This document shows, in pieces, positions 22,797 through 53,739 of a stretch of DNA of 64,000 nucleotides. The DNA lies in contig CACYPV010000003.1 in NCBI GenBank assembly GCA_902776375.1, positions 1 to 64,000 on the forward strand. Direction: 5' to 3'. A model generated the notes under the pieces. It was not told where the DNA came from. It saw only the letters and a program-made list of their open reading frames with translations, and searched no databases. The DNA comes from an uncultured Ruminococcus sp. Lineage in GTDB: Bacteria; Bacillota; Clostridia; Oscillospirales; Acutalibacteraceae. Each line of letters starts with the position of its first letter. The stretch's first letter is position 1. Both the position numbers and the translations under genes were made by a program.

Positions 22797-22808
22797 ATCT
22801 TTAATAAT

Positions 22809-22843
22809 CTAGCTTCTAGCCTCTAGCCTCTAGCTTCTAGCAG
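22809..22843. repeat. Heptanucleotide tandem array, five units (CTAGCTT/CTAGCCT)
   Basis: Five consecutive 7-bp units CTAGCYT (last unit CTAGCAG). The ilvE stop codon (22837-22839 on the minus strand) lies inside the last unit, so the array begins exactly at the end of the coding sequence. Confidence 0.9.
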
Positions 22844-23862
22844 ATCTCTCTGATCCAACCCTCGGGAGCTTCGATCCTGCCCATCTGGATACCGGTGAGA
22901 GTGTCGTAGAGCTTCTTGGTGATCGGACCCATTTCCTCCATGCCAGCGGGGAAGCAGATCTCCTTGCCGTGATCGACGATCTTGCCGACGGGGCTGATAA
23001 CTGCCGCTGTGCCGCAAAGGCCGCACTCTGCAAAGTCCTTTACCTCGTCAAAGTAAACCTCGCGCTGCTCGACTTCAAGACCGAGATACTTCTCGGCAAC
23101 GTACATCAGCGAACGTCTGGTGATAGAGGGCAGGATGCTGTTCGACTTCGGGGTGACTACCTTGCCGTCCTTGGTGATGAACAGGAAGTTCGCGCCGCCT
23201 GTTTCCTCGACCTTGGTGCGGGTAGCCGCGTCGAGATACATGTTCTCGTCAAAGCCCTCGTTGTGAGCGGTAACGATAGCGTGCAGGCTCATGGCGTAGT
23301 TCAGACCCGCCTTGATGTTGCCTGTGCCGTGCGGAGCCGCGCGGTCAAAGTCCGAGACCTTGATGGTGATAGGCTTAGCGCCGCCCTTGAAGTAGGGACC
23401 AACGGGAGTTGCGAACAGACGGAACTGATACTCGTCGGCGGGCTTTACGCCGATAACCGCGTTCTGTCCGAAGATGAACGGACGGAGATAAAGCGTTGCG
23501 CCCGTGCCGTAGGGAGGCACGTAGTCGGCGTTAGCCTTAACTACCTTTTCAACAGCCTCAATGAACCTGTCCTCGGGGAAGGGCGGGATCTCAAGGCGCT
23601 TAGCGCTGTCAACAAGACGCGAAGCGTTGAGGTCGGGGCGGAATACAACGATCTTGCCGTCGACGGTGGTGTAAGCTTTCAGACCCTCAAAAACAGTCTG
23701 AGCATACTGCAATACGCCCGCGCACTCGCTCATGGTGATGGTGGCGTCGGTCGTCATCTCGCCGTCATCCCACTTGCCGTCCTTAAAATAGGATACGTAG
23801 CGCTCGCCTGTGGGGATGTAGCCGAAGCTCAAATTTGCCCAATCAATGTTTTGTTTAGCCAT
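22837..23862 (-). CDS. ilvE: Branched-chain amino acid aminotransferase
   Basis: The 341-residue class IV PLP aminotransferase makes valine, leucine and isoleucine from their keto acids. It has YAQTVFEGLKAY near the N-terminus, the PLP lysine region TRTKVEETGGANFLF and the GTAAVISPVG motif of the long (about 340 residue) subtype. GGAG precedes the ATG. The C-terminus ends in the first unit of a heptanucleotide array. I saw no T-box in the 129 bases upstream. Confidence 0.95.
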   Translation of the reverse strand: MAKQNIDWANLSFGYIPTGERYVSYFKDGKWDDGEMTTDATITMSECAGVLQYAQTVFEGLKAYTTVDGKIVVFRPDLNASRLVDSAKRLEIPPFPEDRFIEAVEKVVKANADYVPPYGTGATLYLRPFIFGQNAVIGVKPADEYQFRLFATPVGPYFKGGAKPITIKVSDFDRAAPHGTGNIKAGLNYAMSLHAIVTAHNEGFDENMYLDAATRTKVEETGGANFLFITKDGKVVTPKSNSILPSITRRSLMYVAEKYLGLEVEQREVYFDEVKDFAECGLCGTAAVISPVGKIVDHGKEICFPAGMEEMGPITKKLYDTLTGIQMGRIEAPEGWIREIC

Positions 23863-28773: not shown

Positions 28774-28792
28774 ACGTTTAACTTATAACTCA

Positions 28793-28855
28793 CTAGCATC
28801 CAGCATCTAGCTTCTAGCCCTAACACCTAATACCTGATACCTAGTACCTAACCAC
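28793..28855. repeat. Heptanucleotide array, nine units, two motif families joined
   Basis: Four units of the CTAGCNT family (28793-28820) run directly into five units of the TAATACC family (28821-28855). The array fills most of the rpmE-yigZ spacer and ends just before the yigZ ribosome binding site. Confidence 0.88.
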
Positions 28856-32463: not shown

Positions 32464-32466
32464 TTA

Positions 32467-32522
32467 TAGGTACTGGGTACTAGGTATCAGGTACCGGTTA
32501 TTAGGAATTGGGTATAAGGATA
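32467..32522. repeat. Heptanucleotide array, eight units (TAGGTAC type)
   Basis: Eight 7-bp units from TAGGTAC to AAGGATA occupy almost the whole rpoD to zincin spacer. The last unit supplies the AAGGA that serves as ribosome binding site for the next gene. Confidence 0.85.
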
Positions 32523-36981: not shown

Positions 36982-39831
36982 TTGCGTTTTCAAAAATTAA
37001 TAACAGGAGTATTGGCATTGATTATGGCTACAGGTACAATGGCTCAGTCCGTTTGCGCGGCGGGCGATAAAAAAACCGACTATCAGGCATATGCTAAGGA
37101 GCTGGACAAGCACGCCTACAGCGGCGACGATCTGGGCGCGGTTTACACAGAAAAATCCACGACCTTCAAGGTGTGGTCGCCAAAGGCGTCGGCTGTTTCG
37201 GTCGACATCTACGATCAGGGCGATCCCTCAAAAAAGGACAAGCCCATCCGTACTACGGGCATGACCCTGGACAGCAAGACGGGCGTTTGGAGCACCACCG
37301 TCAGCGGCAATCTGGCGGGCAAATACTACGACTACGCTGTTACCATCGGCAAAAAGACCAACCGTACGGCTGACATTTACGCGCGCGCTTGCGGCGTGAA
37401 CGGGCAGCGCAGCATGGTGGTAGACCTTAGCAAGACCGATCCCGAAAACTGGAAGAACGACACTCACGTCATGGTGAAGAACTCCACCTCGGCAAGCGTT
37501 TGGGAGATGTCGGTCGCAGACTTTTCCTCGTCCCCGAGCAGCGGAGTGAGGGAGGAGCACCGCGGAAAATACCTTGCTTTCACCGAGAGCGGCACCACTG
37601 TGGACGGTATTCAGGACAGCCCGGCGACCTGCGTCGATTACCTTAAAAAGCTCGGCGTTAAGTACGTGCAGATCATGCCGATGTACGACTTCGGCTCCGT
37701 CGACGAGAGCAAGGACATCATGAAGCAGTACAACTGGGGCTACGACCCGGTGAACTACAACGTCCCCGAGGGCTCTTACTCGACCGACCCGTACAACGGC
37801 GCGGTGCGCATCAAAGAGTGCAAGCAGATGATACAGGCGCTGCACAATGCGGGCATCGGCGTTATAATGGACGTTGTGTACAACCACACCTTCTCGACCG
37901 ATTCATGGTTCCAGCGCACGGTTCCCAACTACTACTACCGCATGAACGACGACGGCACTTTCTCAAACGGCTCCGCCTGCTCAAACGACACCGCCAGCGA
38001 GCACCTCATGTTCAGAAAATACATGATCGACTCCGTGACCTACTGGGCAAAGGAGTACCATATAGACGGCTTCCGCTTTGACCTTATGGGTCTGCACGAC
38101 GTCACCACGATGAACGATATCCGCGACGCGCTTGACGGCCTTTACGAGGACGGCAGCGGCAAGAATATCATAATGTACGGCGAGGCCTGGAACCTGAAGA
38201 CAAAAGCCGACGACGGCACCGAGCTCGCGACCCAGCAGAACGTAAACAAGCTCAACGACCGCATAGGCGCGTTCGACGACACCATCCGCGACGCCATCAA
38301 GGGCAGCGTGATGATGCCCAAGGACGTGGGCTTTGTGCAGAACGGCAGCAAGCGCGGCGACTTAAAGACCGGCTTCCTCGGTCAGTCCGTGCTCGGCTGG
38401 GCAAACGTGCCCTCACAGTGCGTGTCCTACGCCTCCTGCCACGACAACCTCGCACTCTACGACAAGCTGGTCGACACCGTGACCGAGGATGATAAGTACC
38501 GTGAGCGCAACGAAAAAATAGTTTCGATGAACAAGCTGACCGCCGCGATAGTTATGACCTCGCAGGGCATACCGTTCTTCCTCGGCGGCGAGGAATTCGG
38601 GCGCAGCAAGGACGGCGACGAGAACTCCTTCGCTTCCTCGCGCGAGGAAAACCAAGTGGACTGGGAGAATCTTGTCAAGTACGGCGATATCGTCGAATAT
38701 TACCGCGGTCTGATGAAGATACGCGACTCCTTCGCGGCTTTCACCGACTGCACCGCAATGACTGCTAACAATATTTCATCGATCGAAAACCTGCCCAAGG
38801 GCGTTTCGGGCTTTTACATCCCCAACACCGAGCAGGGCAAATGGAGCCGCGTCTGCGTGGTGTTCAACGGCACCGACGACGAGCAGAACGTCAAGGTCGA
38901 CGGCGAGTGGATAAGGATAGCCGACGAGCACGTGGCTGGTCTGAACAACCTGGGCGCCTGTTCCTCAAGCGTTAACGTAAAGCCCCACTCCGCGGCGATA
39001 CTTGTCGACAAGGAAAGCTATGAGACCGCCGGTATATCCGACTACGAGGGCGCGGTGGTCATAGAATATTTCGATAACGACTCTAAAGAGAAGATAGGCG
39101 AGCAGGTCGTGACCGACTCCTACGGCAGCACCTTCAACGTCAACAAGCTTGCCGCAAAGCGTTACTACGACGTCAAGGAGATCAAGGGCGACGACAGCGG
39201 ACTGTTCGAGGAAAAGGTGAATTACATCACCGCCTACGTCAAGCCGTTCGAGGGCAAGATGGTCAACGTCGTCATCAAGTTCGTCGACGACATAAACGGC
39301 TCCGAGCTTGCCGATTCATACGTCATCCGCAACAGGGCGGGGCAGAACTACCGCACTCCCGAGCTGCCGTCCATCGAGAATTACAACCTGCTTTTGAACG
39401 CGCTGCCCGAAAACGGCGCGGGCGAGCTGCCGGATCACGACGTCACCGTTACCTACAAGTACACGCGCGTGACCGACGACGCCGATAAAAGCATTTGCAG
39501 GGTCAACGCCGTCTACATGGACGACGCGGGCAAGGTCATCGATACCGTGACCCTCACCGGCAAGGAGGGCGACCCCTACGACGTTGAGCAGAAGGAGTAC
39601 GAGGAAAAGACCCTCGTCGAGGTTCCCGAGAACGTCTCGGGTCAGTTCAAAAGCGGCGAGGTAAACGTCATCCTAAACTACCTCAACAAGCCCGACCCCA
39701 ACAAGACGCTGCTGAAATTCGTCCTGATAGGCGTCGGCGTGATAGCAGCCCTCTGCGTAGCGTCGGTGATAGTTTCTTTCGTTAAAAGAAAAAAGACCCT
39801 AAAGGCGAATATGGATATCAAGGAAGAATAG
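36982..39831 (+). CDS. Cell-surface type I pullulanase-like GH13 enzyme with MucBP repeats and membrane anchor
   Basis: The 949-residue protein hydrolyses alpha-1,6 branches in starch or pullulan by family expectation. Order: signal peptide (1-27), CBM48-like domain (about 45-150), GH13 barrel with the type I pullulanase motif YNWGYDPVNYN, nucleophile Asp367 (DGFRFDLMG), acid/base Glu401 (YGEAWN) and Asp488 (SCHDN). Three MucBP-like repeats (about 690-905), a membrane helix (about 912-935) and a KRKK tail follow. It is therefore tethered to the outer face of the membrane. The only possible start is TTG at 36982 after AAGGGGG, because an in-frame stop lies five codons upstream. The stop codon is the first triplet of a heptanucleotide array. 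Confidence 0.92.
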   Translation: MRFQKLITGVLALIMATGTMAQSVCAAGDKKTDYQAYAKELDKHAYSGDDLGAVYTEKSTTFKVWSPKASAVSVDIYDQGDPSKKDKPIRTTGMTLDSKTGVWSTTVSGNLAGKYYDYAVTIGKKTNRTADIYARACGVNGQRSMVVDLSKTDPENWKNDTHVMVKNSTSASVWEMSVADFSSSPSSGVREEHRGKYLAFTESGTTVDGIQDSPATCVDYLKKLGVKYVQIMPMYDFGSVDESKDIMKQYNWGYDPVNYNVPEGSYSTDPYNGAVRIKECKQMIQALHNAGIGVIMDVVYNHTFSTDSWFQRTVPNYYYRMNDDGTFSNGSACSNDTASEHLMFRKYMIDSVTYWAKEYHIDGFRFDLMGLHDVTTMNDIRDALDGLYEDGSGKNIIMYGEAWNLKTKADDGTELATQQNVNKLNDRIGAFDDTIRDAIKGSVMMPKDVGFVQNGSKRGDLKTGFLGQSVLGWANVPSQCVSYASCHDNLALYDKLVDTVTEDDKYRERNEKIVSMNKLTAAIVMTSQGIPFFLGGEEFGRSKDGDENSFASSREENQVDWENLVKYGDIVEYYRGLMKIRDSFAAFTDCTAMTANNISSIENLPKGVSGFYIPNTEQGKWSRVCVVFNGTDDEQNVKVDGEWIRIADEHVAGLNNLGACSSSVNVKPHSAAILVDKESYETAGISDYEGAVVIEYFDNDSKEKIGEQVVTDSYGSTFNVNKLAAKRYYDVKEIKGDDSGLFEEKVNYITAYVKPFEGKMVNVVIKFVDDINGSELADSYVIRNRAGQNYRTPELPSIENYNLLLNALPENGAGELPDHDVTVTYKYTRVTDDADKSICRVNAVYMDDAGKVIDTVTLTGKEGDPYDVEQKEYEEKTLVEVPENVSGQFKSGEVNVILNYLNKPDPNKTLLKFVLIGVGVIAALCVASVIVSFVKRKKTLKANMDIKEE

Positions 39832-39863
39832 GTATTAGTGGCTAGTGGCTAGTGACTAGTGGT
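39829..39863. repeat. Heptanucleotide array, five units (TAGTGGC type)
   Basis: TAGGTAT, TAGTGGC twice, TAGTGAC and TAGTGGT. The first TAG is the stop codon of the pullulanase gene. Confidence 0.88.
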
Positions 39864-39866
39864 GTG

Positions 39867-43747: not shown

Positions 43748-43783
43748 AAAGCGCTCCGTTTGTAAAAGACGGGGCGCTTTTTT
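43748..43783 (+). terminator. Terminator of the dockerin pullulanase gene
   Basis: AAAGCGC-CCGT pairs with ACGG-GCGCTTT and is followed by a T-run. A heptanucleotide array begins immediately at the end of that run. Confidence 0.88.
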
Positions 43784-43873
43784 AGATGCTAGAGGCTAGA
43801 AGCTAGAGGCTAGATAGTTGAGGGTAGAGAGTTGAGAGTTGTTTCAAATCTACAATTAACAATCTACAATCTA
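43783..43873. repeat. Heptanucleotide array, thirteen units, several motifs in one register
   Basis: TAGATGC, TAGAGGC, TAGAAGC, TAGAGGC and TAGATAG are followed in the same 7-nt phase by TTGAGGG, TAGAGAG, TTGAGAG, TTGTTTC, AAATCTA, CAATTAA and two CAATCTA. It opens a 505-base gene-free spacer (43710-44214) that consists almost entirely of repeats and two terminators. Confidence 0.85.
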
Positions 43874-43923
43874 CAGTGAAGGGTCGCTTCGCTCCGATTT
43901 GTGTTGCTGCGTGCTTAGCAGAT

Positions 43924-44106: not shown

Positions 44107-44149
44107 ACCTACCCTAATACCTGATACCTAATAACTAGTACCTAAAAAA
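44104..44149. repeat. Heptanucleotide array (TAATACC type)
   Basis: TACACC and TACCC are followed by TAATACC, TGATACC, TAATAAC, TAGTACC and TAAAAAA. The last unit doubles as the T-run of the following minus-strand terminator. Confidence 0.85.
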
Positions 44150-44214: not shown

Positions 44215-45549
44215 TTACTTTTCGATGCACTCGTCAAGCGCGCTGATGATAGCCGCCTTGTCCATTTTTCTGCCGATAAAGACAAGCTTATTTACCCTGT
44301 CGCCGTAAACGGGGTGCCATGCGGCGGCGATATCGGGGTTCATCGCGAGTATCTCCTTGCGGTCTTCCTCGGGGAACGCGGCAATCCAGTCGCCGTCGTC
44401 GGTGGCGTACTTCTGTCTGCCGCTCTGCTCAAAGATGTAGGCGGTGTTGGGAGCCTCCGACACCCAGAACAGACCCTTTGCGCGAATGACCTCCTTAGGC
44501 CAGCTCTCGAAGATGAATTTCTCGAACTTGTCCTTGTTGAAGGGTTTTACGTTCTGATACACGAAGGTGCCGATGCCGTACTCCTCAGCCTCACCCTCCT
44601 CGTGGTGGTGATGGTGGTGATGGTGATGATGTCCGTGTTCCTCGTGTTCGTCGTGGTCGTGATGGTCGTGATGGTCGTGATGGTCGTGCTCGTCATGGTC
44701 GTGCTCGTCATGGTCGTGATGTTCGTGTTCATCATGCTCGTCGTGGTCATGGTGCTCATGCTCGTCGTGAGCGTCATCATCATGCATGTTCTCGGAATTT
44801 TCTCCCTCAAGCTCCATAGCCTTTACCCAGCCTGCGCTCTGCATGATCTTGCGCATGTCGAAGTTGCGCGTGCCGAGGATCTCGCCGACCTCGACCTTGC
44901 CGTAGTTGGTCTCGATTATCTTAGCCTCGGGCTGCAGCGCCTTTATGACCTCAAGCACAGCCTTCTTTTCCTCGGGGGTCACTAGGTCGACCTTGTTGAG
45001 GATGATAGTGGTGCAGTACTCGATTTGCTGAATGAGCAGGTTTTCGATGTCCTCCTCGTCGAGATCGTCGTTGAGCAGCGCCTTGCCCGCGCCGAACTCG
45101 TCCGCCATGCGCTTGGCGTCGACGATGGTCGTAATGCTGTCGAGGTAAGCGACCGCCGGCAGGTTAGCCTGCTTCTGCGTGCCGTCGAGCATACAGATAG
45201 AGCCCGCGATGGGACCCGGCTCGCAGATTCCCGAAGCCTCGATAAGGATGTAGTCGAAGCGCTTTGAACGCGCGAGCTCGATTATCTGCTTCATCAGATC
45301 GACCTTAAGCGTGCAGCAAATGCAGCCGTTTTGAAGGGGAACGAGGTTCTCGTCCTTCTGAGTGACCGCGCCGCCCTTGGCTATCAGCGATGCGTCGATG
45401 TTGACCTCGCCGATGTCGTTAACGATAACGGCTACCTTGTAGCCCTCCTGATTTGCAAGTACGTGGTTGAGCACGGTGGTCTTGCCCGCGCCCAGATAGC
45501 CCGTCAAAAGCGATACGGGCACAAGCTTGCTTTGCTTTTTCTTAAACAT
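44215..45549 (-). CDS. COG0523 (CobW/ZNG1-like) GTPase metallochaperone with a long His-rich region
   Basis: The 444-residue protein has a SIMIBI GTPase domain with Walker A GYLGAGKTT (residues 17-25), the metal motif CICC (Cys76, Cys78, Cys79), ILIEASGICEPGP and the guanine motif NKVD. A His/Asp/Glu-only stretch at about residues 253-318 follows, ending in a run of ten His, and then the CobW_C domain. COG0523 proteins insert or buffer zinc, cobalt or nickel. With zinc genes elsewhere in the window, zinc is the likeliest metal, but this is inference. The ATG follows AGGAGG, directly downstream of a heptanucleotide array. Confidence 0.92.
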   Translation of the reverse strand: MFKKKQSKLVPVSLLTGYLGAGKTTVLNHVLANQEGYKVAVIVNDIGEVNIDASLIAKGGAVTQKDENLVPLQNGCICCTLKVDLMKQIIELARSKRFDYILIEASGICEPGPIAGSICMLDGTQKQANLPAVAYLDSITTIVDAKRMADEFGAGKALLNDDLDEEDIENLLIQQIEYCTTIILNKVDLVTPEEKKAVLEVIKALQPEAKIIETNYGKVEVGEILGTRNFDMRKIMQSAGWVKAMELEGENSENMHDDDAHDEHEHHDHDEHDEHEHHDHDEHDHDEHDHHDHHDHHDHDEHEEHGHHHHHHHHHHEEGEAEEYGIGTFVYQNVKPFNKDKFEKFIFESWPKEVIRAKGLFWVSEAPNTAYIFEQSGRQKYATDDGDWIAAFPEEDRKEILAMNPDIAAAWHPVYGDRVNKLVFIGRKMDKAAIISALDECIEK

Positions 45550-45565
45550 ATATATTCCTCCTGTA

Positions 45566-45614
45566 TAGGTATTAGGTGTTAGGTATTAGGTACTAGGTAT
45601 CAGGTACTAGGTTC
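45566..45614. repeat. Heptanucleotide array, seven units (TAGGTAT type)
   Basis: TAGGTAT, TAGGTGT, TAGGTAT, TAGGTAC, TAGGTAT, CAGGTAC and TAGGTTC lie just upstream of the GTPase gene's ribosome binding site and beside a B-type repeat. Confidence 0.9.
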
Positions 45615-45617
45615 GGT

Positions 45618-45692
45618 GTAGGGGCGGACCCGTGTGTCCGCCCGAAAACGTCGCATTATTCCGCGGGCGCACACATGGGTGCGCCCCTACGT
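45618..45692. repeat. Dispersed double-palindrome repeat (B type), copy 3
   Basis: Both palindromes and the CCGAAAACG linker match copy 1 in the same orientation. The flank AAGAACAAACGTTTCCG is also shared with copy 1 in slightly changed form. Confidence 0.92.
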
Positions 45693-45720
45693 CAAAGAAC
45701 AAACGTTTCCGTCGATTCAA

Positions 45721-45755
45721 TTACGCATTACGAATTACGAATTACGCATTATCCC
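45721..45755. repeat. Heptanucleotide array, five units (TTACGAA type)
   Basis: TTACGCA, TTACGAA twice, TTACGCA and TTATCCC. The stop and the last codons of tadA (minus strand) are made of these units. Confidence 0.9.
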
Positions 45756-46194
45756 TCAGTTTTTTAAAAAACTCTTTCAAAAGCCCCGCGCAATCTTCCT
45801 CTAAAATCCCGCCCTCGTATTCCGGCTTGAAGTTGTAGGGCATTTCAAAAAGGTTGGTTATTGTGCCGCAGGAGCCGTTTTTGAAGTCGTAGGCTCCAAA
45901 GTACACCTTCGGGATATGCGCGTTTATTATCGCGCCGGCGCACATCGGGCAGGGCTCAAGCGTGACGTATATCTCGCAGTTCCACAGCCGCCAGCCGCCC
46001 AGCTTGTTGCACGCGTTGTTAATTGCGTCTATCTCGGCGTGCAGCAGGGCGTTTTTGGCTTTTTCGCGGCGGTTCCTGCCGGTGGCGATGATCTCGCCGT
46101 CCCTGACTATGACCGCGCCTACGGGCACCTCTCCGTCGTCGAACGCCTCGCGCGCCATGCTCAGCGCCGCCGCCATGTAATCATTCTTGTTCAT
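45742..46194 (-). CDS. tadA: tRNA-specific adenosine deaminase
   Basis: TadA converts A34 to inosine in tRNA-Arg(ACG), allowing wobble reading. The 150-residue protein has the catalytic HAE motif (LLHAEIDA) and the zinc motif PCPMCAGA. It has the usual length. The start overlaps the stop of the upstream protease gene by 4 nt. The C-terminal codons and the TAA stop lie within a CGTAATT heptanucleotide array, so the end of the protein has been shaped by the repeat. Confidence 0.94.
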   Translation of the reverse strand: MNKNDYMAAALSMAREAFDDGEVPVGAVIVRDGEIIATGRNRREKAKNALLHAEIDAINNACNKLGGWRLWNCEIYVTLEPCPMCAGAIINAHIPKVYFGAYDFKNGSCGTITNLFEMPYNFKPEYEGGILEEDCAGLLKEFFKKLRDNA

Positions 46195-47336: not shown

Positions 47337-47341
47337 GTGGC

Positions 47342-47404
47342 TAGGTTGTAGGTATTAGGTGTTAGGTATCAGGTATCAGGTATTAGGTATCAGGTATCAG
47401 GGAC
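47342..47404. repeat. Heptanucleotide array, nine units (TAGGTAT/CAGGTAT)
   Basis: Nine units from TAGGTTG to CAGGGAC in a single register. It is the left edge of the 658-base gene-poor region between the protease and epimerase genes. Confidence 0.92.
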
Positions 47405-47417
47405 GTAGAGGAAATCT

Positions 47418-47556: not shown

Positions 47557-47672
47557 CTAAGCCATTATTTAAGACTATGGAAGCTATGGAAGTTTTTTAT
47601 AGGACTTTTACAAAACTGAAAAAAATATATAAAAGTATGTAATTTTTTTAAGTATATAGGAGGTTTGCGGTT

Positions 47673-47707
47673 TAGAGGCTAGAAGCTAGAGGCTAGAGGC
47701 TAGAGGT
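47673..47707. repeat. Heptanucleotide array, five units (TAGAGGC type)
   Basis: TAGAGGC, TAGAAGC, TAGAGGC twice and TAGAGGT. It runs into a 14-base remnant of the B-type repeat (47705-47718). Confidence 0.9.
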
Positions 47708-47728
47708 GCGCCCCTACGTATAGAATCA

Positions 47729-47809: not shown

Positions 47810-47819
47810 TCTACGCACC

Positions 47820-47854
47820 TAATACCTAATACCTAGTACCTAGTACCTAACCAT
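47820..47854. repeat. Heptanucleotide array, five units (TAATACC type)
   Basis: TAATACC twice, TAGTACC twice and TAACCAT. It ends shortly before the epimerase promoter. Confidence 0.9.
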
Positions 47855-47946: not shown

Positions 47947-48984
47947 ATGGATAATATTGTAAAAAGCTGCGTCAGCGGCACAGTATATTCCGATCTGCTT
48001 GAAGTCGTTTCTGCCGTCCCCGAAAACATCAAGGACTGCGCCTTTCTCATAACGGGAGCCGACAGCCTTACGGGCTTTTACATGGCGGCGGCTCTGCTGC
48101 TGCGCAACGATATGTATGATTCCGGCTGCACCGTGACCGCACTGGTCAGCGATTGGGAGCAGGCTCAGGGCTATTACGGAAGCTTGCTCAGACGTGATGA
48201 TATCAAGCTTTTTGTTTGGGACGCTATGACGCCGATACAGGCTCCCCGCGCCGATTATATCATACACACCGCAGGGCTTGACGTCAGCGTCGACATGAAT
48301 CTGAGCGGCACGGTAAACACCCTCGACTTTGCTGCAGCGGGCAAAAGCAAGGCTGCGCTGATAGTATCCTCAGCCGACGTTTACGGTATCATTTATAAGA
48401 ATAAGGACAAAATATCCGAGGAGGACAGCGGCTACATCGACTTTAACTCGCCCTCCGGCTTTTCGGACATGAGCAAAAGAGCGGGCGAGACCATCGGCGC
48501 GGCGTATTGCAAAGACCGCGATATGAACGTGAAGCTCGCGCGCGTGGGCAGGGTCTACGGCGGAGACGTGCATGTTGACGGCGACCCGTACCTGCGCATT
48601 TTGATAGACGCGGCGGCAGGCAGAGATATCACGCTCGACTTCGACGGCGCGCAAAGGCGCTCGTTCTGCTACGCTTCCGACGTTGCCTCGGCGCTGTTCA
48701 CCGTGCTTTTCAAGGGCGAAAACGCCTTTCCTTATAATATAGCCGGCAAGTCGTCCGACGTGTCGATAAGGGACTTCGCAAAAAGAGTCTGCAAGGTCAA
48801 AGGGAATGTCAAGCTCAGCTTCTCGAACCCCGACCACGCGCAGGAGCCGGCGGAGCTCAAAACGCCCCTGCACCAAGTCCCCGAAGTTCTCGACAACACA
48901 AGGCTGAGCAATCTCGGATTCGAGCCCAAGGTCGATCCGGACGAGGGGATAAAACGGGCGTTAATGATAATTCGTAATTCGTAA
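47947..48984 (+). CDS. Extended SDR (NAD-dependent epimerase/dehydratase family)
   Basis: The 345-residue protein has a Rossmann fold with the modified glycine motif ITGADSLTGFYM, DYIIHTAG and the late AGRDITLDFDGAQRRSFCYASDVA region split by sheets, typical of sugar-nucleotide epimerases. The catalytic YxxxK position reads SDMSK, so the usual tyrosine is absent. The nearby PSGF might substitute, or the enzyme may be inactive or of altered mechanism. It precedes a CDP-ribitol cluster, suggesting a role in wall polymer precursor synthesis. The last codons and stop lie in a CGTAATT array. Confidence 0.82.
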   Translation: MDNIVKSCVSGTVYSDLLEVVSAVPENIKDCAFLITGADSLTGFYMAAALLLRNDMYDSGCTVTALVSDWEQAQGYYGSLLRRDDIKLFVWDAMTPIQAPRADYIIHTAGLDVSVDMNLSGTVNTLDFAAAGKSKAALIVSSADVYGIIYKNKDKISEEDSGYIDFNSPSGFSDMSKRAGETIGAAYCKDRDMNVKLARVGRVYGGDVHVDGDPYLRILIDAAAGRDITLDFDGAQRRSFCYASDVASALFTVLFKGENAFPYNIAGKSSDVSIRDFAKRVCKVKGNVKLSFSNPDHAQEPAELKTPLHQVPEVLDNTRLSNLGFEPKVDPDEGIKRALMIIRNS

Positions 48985-49112
48985 TTCGTAATGCGTAATT
49001 TGAATTACAAGTTACAAATGACAAATGACAAGTTGATTTAAAACTTGCAATTTGTAATTTGTAATTTTCAACTACCTAATACCTAATCACGCTAATACCT
49101 AATACCTAGTAC
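48966..49112. repeat. Long heptanucleotide array, 21 units in one register, four motif families
   Basis: Starting inside the epimerase gene: GATAATT, CGTAATT type (5 units), CAAATGA type, ATTTGTA type and then CTAATAC type. All are in phase over 147 bases. The epimerase stop (48982-48984) lies in the second CGTAATT transition. The CAAGTT/ACTTG portions are mutually complementary and could form a hairpin. Confidence 0.88.
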
Positions 49113-53430: not shown

Positions 53431-53474
53431 TGGTTAGAAGCTAGATTAGGTATTAGGTATCAGGTATTAGGGGT
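53428..53474. repeat. Heptanucleotide array, mixed TAGTGGT/TAGGTAT units
   Basis: TAGTGGT (its TAG is the preceding gene's stop), TAGAAGC, a five-base TAGAT, then TAGGTAT, TAGGTAT or CAGGTAT units. It opens a 484-base spacer before infC that is filled by repeats, a promoter and a leader. Confidence 0.85.
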
Positions 53475-53482
53475 GTAGTGGA

Positions 53483-53580: not shown

Positions 53581-53697
53581 TTCTGTCTGCGCATGGTACC
53601 TTTGCGGCTTTCTGTTCATCAGCATAGCCGCCGGTTTGGATCAACGCCGAGTCATAACGCGTGCCGCGAGGTCGTTTTTAACACAAACTTAAGGAGC

Positions 53698-53739
53698 GCG
53701 AAATAAAATACGCGAAGTAAAATACGCGAAATAAAATAC
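53698..53739 (+). repeat. Three tandem 14-bp repeats abutting the infC promoter
   Basis: GCGAAATAAAATAC, GCGAAGTAAAATAC and GCGAAATAAAATAC follow each other without gaps, and the next six bases are the TTGACA of the infC promoter. They could act as an UP-element-like or regulator binding region. Confidence 0.92.

What the first reader, a model, noticed from the sequence alone, without database searches (positions are those of the whole stretch)
48966..49112. Heptanucleotide arrays that keep a 7-nt register while changing motif
This spacer is 147 bases, exactly 21 units of 7. It passes from CGTAATT to CAAATGA, ATTTGTA and CTAATAC units without loss of phase. The array at 43783-43873 behaves the same way over 13 units with other motifs. 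At least thirteen arrays occur between 22.8 and 53.5 kb, all between genes. Tandem heptanucleotide repeats (STRR) are known from heterocystous cyanobacteria; a multi-family set in a Firmicute-like genome suggests one process that enforces the 7-nt period independently of sequence.
Basis: partly seen in the sequence, partly recalled or inferred. Interest (0 to 1): 0.7.

Follow-up and report, generated by a model that had tools for sequence, protein, structure and literature searches.

The report
Seven-letter repeats arming intergenic hairpin elements
Many gaps between genes in this bacterium begin and end with short tandem 7-letter repeats that face each other like the two arms of a hairpin, and a similar layout turns up in unrelated bacteria, which makes the old question of why bacterial repeats favour a unit of seven easier to test.

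Summary
The heptanucleotide arrays are real, genome-wide and specific to period 7. The unbroken 21-unit register at 48966-49112 is only partly right: one step is 9 nt, and neighbouring units match 0 of 7 at two places. The spacer is a composite: a CGTAATT array holding the upstream ORF's stop codon, a copy of a dispersed hairpin whose arms have a 7-nt period (31-mer at 5 genome sites exactly, focal one included; 17 within 3 mismatches; control 0), and a TAGGTAT array on the other strand. CAAATGA and ATTTGTA are the two arms of that hairpin.

Arrays sit at gene borders and point inward. Within 30 nt of a gene the G-rich strand runs away from the gene in 89 of 97 arrays of six congeneric genomes and 58 of 68 in other phyla, where only 3' ends clearly exceed background. 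Two-array spacers are convergent in 33 of 35 and 23 of 31. Orthologues show whole-unit changes and swapped cores.

Best reading: arrays are arms of hairpin-forming intergenic elements copied between spacers. Convergent GGGAATC pairs are already known in Xanthomonas. Why seven stays open.

The parts
48966..49000 (+). CGTAATT array; overlaps the 3' end of ORF 47947-48984 and holds its stop codon TAA (48982-48984)
49001..49074 (.). copy of a dispersed hairpin element with heptamer-periodic arms (left arm about 49003-49035, right arm about 49042-49074; loop shorter than in most other copies that have both arms)
   Evidence: 48966-49112 folds with z -4.7 as RNA, -4.1 as DNA; 31-mer 49044-49074(-) exact at 5 genome sites, this one included, 17 within 3 mismatches, control 0; copies laid side by side
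49072..49112 (-). TAGGTAT-family array (reads CTAATAC on +), with one 9-nt step between 49083 and 49092
43779..43841 (+). TAGAGGC array passing into TTGAGAG units, left part of its spacer (69 nt from the gene)
43846..43880 (+). CAATCTA units; same composite at L062:4398-4432
44112..44145 (-). TAGGTAT-family array, right arm of the same spacer
45563..45614 (+). TAGGTAT array, left border
45615..45694 (.). palindromic core (GTAGGGGCGGACCC type) between two arrays; similar stretches in several other array spacers
   Evidence: 45615-45759, right array included, folds with z -5.3; spacer comparison
45716..45758 (-). CGTAATT-family array, right border, overlapping a gene end
47340..47406 (+). TAGGTAT array, left border
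47669..47712 (+). TAGAGGC array inside the spacer
47813..47853 (-). TAGGTAT-family array, right side
22803..22846 (-). TAGAGGC-family array
28791..28852 (-). TAGAAGC and TAGGTAT composite array
32466..32497 (+). TAGGTAC array in a 65-nt spacer; the spacer of kin G013 is far shorter and has no array
39827..39866 (+). TAGTGGC array at a gene 3' end
53442..53475 (+). TAGGTAT array, left border

Best explanation
The arrays are the arms of modular, hairpin-forming intergenic elements. An element is laid out as [heptamer array, G-rich strand inward] - palindromic or unrelated core - [a second array, inverted]. It fills the spacer up to the gene borders. Shown: convergent polarity at gene borders; arms of one element more alike than arms of different elements in part of the genomes; near-identical family junctions dispersed over the genome; arm changes of one or two whole units between species at some sites; arms kept while the core is swapped at some sites. 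Inferred: arms lengthen and shorten by replication slippage in 7-nt steps; arms are kept matched because each can template the other in a hairpin; elements and cores move between spacers by copying (ectopic conversion or template switching) with arrays as homology. The focal spacer is two arrays around a shortened copy of one such hairpin. Why the unit is seven is not explained by this.
For: Polarity by G minus C, arrays within 30 nt of a gene: genus 89 of 97 (3' ends 64/67, 5' ends 25/30); other phyla 58 of 68 (39/43, 19/25). Spacer edges without arrays, inward:outward: genus 109:117 (3') and 82:197 (5'); other phyla 65:45 (3') and 80:61 (5'). Arrays exceed that background in the genus at both ends (p 5e-14 and 1e-8) and in other phyla at 3' ends (p 1e-4). 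Over six settings of array and gene calling the share near genes runs from 69/84 to 77/82 in the genus without G012 and from 51/65 to 58/68 in other phyla. Two-array spacers convergent 33/35 and 23/31. Arms more alike than shuffled within genome: genus 37 pairs p=0.003, other phyla 24 pairs p=0.03. Five Chitinophaga elements fold as long hairpins, z -13.8 to -22.2, and read by eye each has its own inner tag shared by both arms, four perfectly and one with one mismatch. Joints: 34 sites (8 exact) against 0 control and 17 (5 exact) against 0. Orthologous spacers G012/G017: arm changes of 14 nt, unit turnover, core swaps. Kin G013/G006 have neither arrays nor core at the sites compared by eye.
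Against: In other phyla the 5' share (19/25) is not clearly above background (80/141; p=0.08). Single arrays near 5' ends show no clear polarity (4 of 8 genus, 7 of 10 others, within 30 nt). Arms match significantly in G017 and G012 (p=0.017 each, 5 pairs each) but not in G000 (p=0.11, 20 pairs) or G042 (p=0.97, 6 pairs). CGTAATT arrays pooled over 117 loci show no orientation (49 of 94 inward), and the same unit faces opposite ways in G000 and Chitinophaga. Arrays more than 60 nt from genes show no rule (14 of 31 genus, 20 of 32 others). Two of six folded spacer pieces are weak (L072 z -0.4, a piece without its right arm; L309 z -2.1). One compared arm edge differs by about 3 nt, not 7 (case 3), and the arm lengths at L071/L075 were not resolved. 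No target-site duplication or clean empty site was seen, so movement as a unit is not shown.
Confidence: 0.5

Rival explanations
1. Ordinary simple sequence repeats (STRR-like): chance seeds in spacers grow by polymerase slippage, with a preferred unit of 7 nt; no element, no function.
For: Period-7 excess whatever the unit; arm changes of 14 nt and compensated single-unit turnover between G012 and G017; match decays equally at both ends of arrays, i.e. no growth direction seen. PMC4692102 reports the published idea that polymerase footprint favours such repeats (passages).
Against: Does not predict convergent polarity anchored on gene borders, near-identical joints between families at dozens of dispersed sites, or matching inner tags of both arms.
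Confidence: 0.2
2. Selected gene-end signals: arrays are kept because the sense strand after a gene carries stop codons in all frames, or because the paired arms act as RNA hairpins or terminators.
For: Polarity is strongest at 3' ends and holds for single arrays there (33/36 and 17/18 within 30 nt). In the genus 133 of 140 arrays have a unit with a stop codon on the G-rich strand against 102 expected from permuted letters. The focal array holds a stop codon. Strong predicted hairpins at some spacers.
Against: In other phyla stops are not enriched (64 of 114 against 72.3 expected) although 3' polarity holds. Paired arrays at 5' ends also obey it (21/21 genus, 12/15 others, within 30 nt). Kin G013/G006 have no arrays at the compared gene ends. 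Arms in G000 and G042 are not generally alike.
Confidence: 0.15
3. Scars of break repair: both 3' ends of a broken spacer are extended by a reiterative 7-nt synthesis rich in G, then joined through copied filler, giving telomere-like polarity.
For: G-rich strand runs 5'->3' away from the gene on both sides in the genus; at the compared sites the kin spacer sequence is not recognisable in G000 up to the gene borders; patchwork cores; G042 units such as TTAGGGA and TTAGGTT.
Against: No gradient of unit age along arrays. Single 5' arrays do not follow the rule. No reverse transcriptase by PF00078 in array-rich G042, G052 and G065. No enzyme identified.
Confidence: 0.07
4. Classical MITEs: array-armed elements are moved by a transposase that reads the terminal repeats.
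For: Inverted arms, high copy number, palindromic cores.
Against: Arm sequence differs between species and between elements of one genome; no target-site duplication noticed in the G012/G017 comparisons; no Y1 transposase match in G000, G042, G052, G065, G073, though G012 and G017 have two each. Other transposase families were not searched.
Confidence: 0.08

Closest known systems
GGGAATC / GGGGA(C/T)T heptamer repeats of Xanthomonas and Nostoc (PMC4692102; passages and sections 10-11 read)
   Same: Tandem heptamers, mostly intergenic; convergent neighbouring sites in 70 and 75 cases in two Xanthomonas genomes; repeats lie on average 28 nt from the 5' neighbouring ORF against 160 nt downstream, which agrees with the polarity found here
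   Different: The sections read treat one G-rich unit type per genome; here many units, most of them without a run of three G, occur within one genome and over several phyla; the paper saw few pairs in Nostoc
TAACTGA direct repeats of Beggiatoaceae, Cyanobacteria, Bacteroidetes (PMC4679880; abstract and sections 8 and 10 read)
   Same: Dispersed intergenic heptamers, patchy across phyla, differences between two Cyanothece strains mostly in 7-nt steps, mixed with other heptamers in some genomes
   Different: One unit, mostly just upstream of start codons in BOGUAY, with one indirect repeat only; no arms or hairpin elements in the sections read
STRR of heterocystous cyanobacteria (named in listings; heptanucleotides of Calothrix in a passage; otherwise recalled)
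   Same: Multicopy tandem heptanucleotides
   Different: Known to me as simple tandem repeats, not as paired arms; recalled, primary papers not read
REP/BIME and MITE elements (PMC3733652, listing only; PMC4596501 BrickBuilt, passages)
   Same: Short dispersed palindromic elements; a MITE holding tandem repeats exists
   Different: BrickBuilt has a 23-nt tandem repeat between small inverted ends; here the inverted arms themselves are the tandem repeats and their sequence varies

Membership tests
Intergenic heptanucleotide SSR (STRR-like) | Tandem 7-nt units, multicopy, mainly between genes | tested here: met
Intergenic heptanucleotide SSR (STRR-like) | Length variation by whole units between close relatives | tested here: met
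   14-nt changes at two of ten compared G012/G017 sites (one of them with a further left-arm change of 13) and single-unit turnover at a third; one edge differs by about 3 nt; tested in kin, not in G000
GGGAATC-type G4 heptamer repeats | Unit with a run of three or more G | tested here: not met
   TAGGTAT, TAGAGGC, CGTAATT and TTGAGAG units have at most two G in a row
GGGAATC-type G4 heptamer repeats | Convergent pairs, 5' side of the G strand close to a gene | tested here: met
TAACTGA repeats | Unit TAACTGA, mostly forward upstream of start codons | not tested
   TAACTGA was not searched in G000
MITE | Terminal inverted repeats | tested here: met
   convergent arms, but their sequence is not fixed and in G000 the two arms often differ
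MITE | Target-site duplication / clean empty site | tested here: inconclusive
   no clean empty site among the compared spacers; spacer sequence looks replaced, not simply interrupted
MITE | Partner transposase with the same ends | not tested
   only Y1_Tnp was searched
REP/RAYT | Y1-type (RAYT) transposase in the genome | tested here: not met
   PF01797 gives no match in G000, G042, G052, G065, G073; two each in G012 and G017
RT-made tandem repeats | Reverse transcriptase in array-rich genomes | tested here: not met
   PF00078: two fragments at contig ends in G000, matches in G012, G017 and G073, none in G042, G052, G065; these last three drafts are 78, 98 and 87% complete

The most novel reading that the evidence does not exclude
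Heptamer-armed intergenic elements in many bacterial phyla are products of one conserved DNA-synthesis process that reiterates a 7-nt step independently of sequence, with the G-rich strand growing away from genes into the spacer on both sides, as in healing of broken ends.
Probability: 0.1. Interest if true: 0.85.

Novelty: new variant of a known kind. Interest (0 to 1): 0.55.

Why it matters
Over-representation of heptamers in bacteria is in print, with only a short hypothesis on mechanism in the passages read. A polarity and pairing rule that holds for many unrelated units, in one genus at both gene ends and in other phyla at least at 3' ends, gives a concrete constraint: a mechanism must explain arms that face each other across a spacer. 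It also reads patchwork spacers as swappable cores between arms, which matters for interpreting UTRs, terminators and draft assemblies in such genomes.

Tried and rejected
Reverse transcriptase as the maker of repeats: no link with array-rich genomes. RAYT transposase: absent from five array-bearing genomes, present in two. Universal stop-codon selection: stops enriched in the genus but not in other phyla. Orientation rule for CGTAATT itself across phyla: none, 49 of 94. Growth gradient along arrays: none. A/T skew as orientation marker: no rule (51 of 88 within 30 nt). Arms always sharing a dialect: not so in G000 and G042. Other-period repeats as polarity control: few, inward at lags 5, 6, 8, 9, 10, 11, 13 in 2/2, 1/2, 14/21, 10/19, 4/12, 8/9, 0/2, so a weaker polarity of other repeats is not excluded. 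An earlier cross-phylum test on the arrays of the 117 loci other than CGTAATT gave 48 of 70 inward.

Rows dropped before counts: arrays more than 60% inside a predicted gene, arrays without a called gene on both sides, arrays with fewer than three different letters (from then on, except) and, in the G/C counts, arrays with equal G and C. In the other-phylum set L327, L328, L343, L344 (G081) and L355 (G093) were left out as too short. Counts of the genus differ slightly between because the gene caller was retrained. G012 is orthologous to G017 in part; one search repeats the genus count without it. My gene caller misses small genes (a ribosomal-protein-L31-like ORF near 28.6 kb, seen by eye).

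Sampling: the 19 other-phylum genomes came from loci holding (CGTAATT)3. Their stretches were mostly contig starts or round coordinates; those of G086 and G091 lie on contigs that appeared in the hit list. G042, G052, G073 and part of G017 were taken around pattern hits. About 18% of G000 was read.

Full report
What is there. The focal stretch 48966-49112 holds real 7-nt tandem repeats. The window has 12 lag-7 stretches at a 75% match, 7 at the harmonic 14, and at most 2 at any other lag up to 13. Across 398,744 nt of the same genome, lag 7 gives 53 arrays and the other lags from 4 to 13 give 0-7. The whole-genome count of TAGGTAT x3 (up to 3 mismatches) is 205 against 1 for the reversed control.

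Limits of the observation. The 147 bases are not 21 unbroken units. One step between CTAA words is 9 nt, one between AATT words is 6, and adjacent heptamers share 0 of 7 letters at the hairpin centre and at 49085/49092. The array begins inside the upstream ORF and holds its stop codon.

What the focal spacer is. Its middle is a copy of a dispersed hairpin: the 31-mer at 49044-49074 (minus strand) is exact at 5 genome places, itself included, and within 3 mismatches at 17, with 0 in the reversed control. Fourteen fetched copies, the focal copy and S27 (L062) laid side by side show a second arm in roughly ten of the sixteen, usually across a longer loop; L358, L359, L365 and L366 lack it, judged by eye. 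The stretch 48966-49112 folds with z -4.7 as RNA. CAAATGA and ATTTGTA are therefore the two arms of one inverted repeat. Another joint between unit families (GGCTAGTGAGTWATAAGTWATAAG) occurs 34 times within 3 mismatches, 8 times exactly, against 0 in control. I read such joints as copied, not made anew.

The rule. In 463 kb of the genome (window plus L050-L069) there are 75 arrays, 2 of them inside genes; of 69 placed in spacers with a gene called on both sides, 59 have the purine-rich strand pointing inward from the nearer border. Many abut genes. Pooled with five congeneric genomes, arrays within 30 nt of a gene have the G-rich strand running away from the gene in 89 of 97 cases, at 3' ends 64 of 67 and at 5' ends 25 of 30; A/T skew shows nothing. 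Spacer edges without arrays show 109 inward to 117 outward at 3' ends and 82 to 197 at 5' ends; the difference has p 5e-14 and 1e-8. Two-array spacers are convergent in 33 of 35.

Beyond the genus. Their titles include Cyanobacteria, Bacteroidota, Ignavibacteria, Anaerolineae, Acidobacteria, Planctomycetota, Akkermansia, Treponema, Clostridia, Desulfobia, Gammaproteobacteria and candidate phyla. In 19 of these genomes, chosen because they hold the unit, there are 7 to 2073 matches (up to 2 mismatches), with 0 control matches in 18 and 2 in one. In stretches of 13 of them lag 7 gives 158 arrays against 1-29 at the other lags from 4 to 13. Polarity appears there too: 88 of 114 overall and 58 of 68 near genes; two-array spacers are convergent in 23 of 31. 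Their array-free edges lean inward as well (65:45 and 80:61), so only the 3' ends clearly exceed background (39/43, p 1e-4), the 5' ends not (19/25, p 0.08). Against this also, CGTAATT arrays pooled over the 117 loci show no orientation (49 of 94), and single arrays at 5' ends are not clearly oriented (4 of 8 and 7 of 10 within 30 nt).

Anatomy of elements. In Chitinophaga solisilvae five elements of 131-165 nt have AATTACG arms, a palindromic inner stem and different inner tags shared by the two arms (four perfectly, one with one mismatch, read by eye). They fold with z -13.8 to -22.2. In G000 some spacers are array-to-array hairpins (L061:5185-5290 z -5.5, L064:9336-9450 z -7.2), while two kin pieces fold weakly (L072 z -0.4, without its right arm; L309 z -2.1). 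Arm similarity exceeds shuffling over all (p=0.003, 37 pairs; other phyla p=0.03, 24 pairs), in G017 and G012 (p=0.017 each), but not in G000 alone (p=0.11) or G042 (p=0.97).

Change over time. Kin G013 and G006 lack arrays and cores at the spacers compared by eye. Within 60 genomes of the genus, TAGGTAT x3 (up to 3 mismatches) occurs in 10, in large number only in G000 (205, control 1) and G042 (68, control 16); most other listed hits are TAGGAAT, and G063 has 12 control matches and no true ones. G012 and G017 share 90.6-93.4% nucleotide identity in aligned stretches. Ten orthologous array sites were aligned. One keeps the core while the right arm differs by 14 nt (45 against 31) and the left by 13 (37 against 50). 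One has a left arm shorter by exactly 14 (36 against 22). One shows a unit gained and another lost at equal length. Four keep arms of the same or a similar kind but have a different core. One has both arms in another dialect. Two have arrays in G012 only. One is unchanged. One site falls into two of these classes. One arm edge differs by about 3 nt.

Mechanism. I favour arms of hairpin elements that change by whole units through slippage, are kept alike through hairpin templating, and spread by copying; cores are swapped between arms. Slippage, templating and the copying route are inferred. Reverse transcriptase and Y1 transposase do not track the arrays. Stop-codon selection may add to polarity at 3' ends in this genus (133 of 140 against 102 expected), but not elsewhere (64 of 114 against 72.3). 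The telomere-like polarity makes end-extension conceivable, but there is no age gradient along arrays and no enzyme.

Known work. Convergent heptamer pairs and closeness to the 5' gene are in print for GGGAATC in Xanthomonas (PMC4692102, sections 10 and 11 read). Steps of 7 nt between two Cyanothece strains are in print for TAACTGA (PMC4679880, section 10 read). Over-representation of heptamers and the polymerase-footprint idea are cited in PMC4692102 as its reference 33, which I take to be Mrazek and colleagues 2007 from memory and did not read. My paper searches listed no work that, by title or abstract start, states the polarity or paired-arm rule for several units or phyla; most subscription papers are outside that library.

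Noticed in passing
window 53697-53739: A 14-nt tandem repeat (CGCGAAATAAAATA, 3.1 copies) just upstream of a promoter-like AT-rich stretch (by eye), unlike the other heptamer arrays.
   Followed up: no
window 44597-44785: Region of nested 9/15/24/42/48-nt repeats inside the ORF 44215-45549 on the minus strand; by eye it encodes a His/Asp-rich stretch, perhaps metal-binding.
   Followed up: no
L071:17213-17426 and L073:10111-10258 (G017): Elements with TTAAGTTAAGG / CCTTAACTTAA-like ends present in G017 and absent in G012 at the same spacers; their core resembles cores found between heptamer arms.
   Followed up: partly
G000:C55:2-394 and G000:C25:2-148: Two fragments of a reverse transcriptase gene at contig ends, perhaps one copy split by the assembly.
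   Followed up: no
L314:19195-19448 (G017): A 254-nt array of about 36 units of the ACCACTG/ATCACTA kind, the longest in the genus sample.
   Followed up: no
L237-L276: Exact (CGTAATT)3 also occurs in 40 stretches of uncultivated-virus contigs; not examined for whether they are host flanks.
   Followed up: no
L322, L339, L340 (Chitinophaga solisilvae): Long, nearly perfect predicted hairpins (roughly 45-65 bp) whose inner stems differ between elements but match within each.
   Followed up: partly
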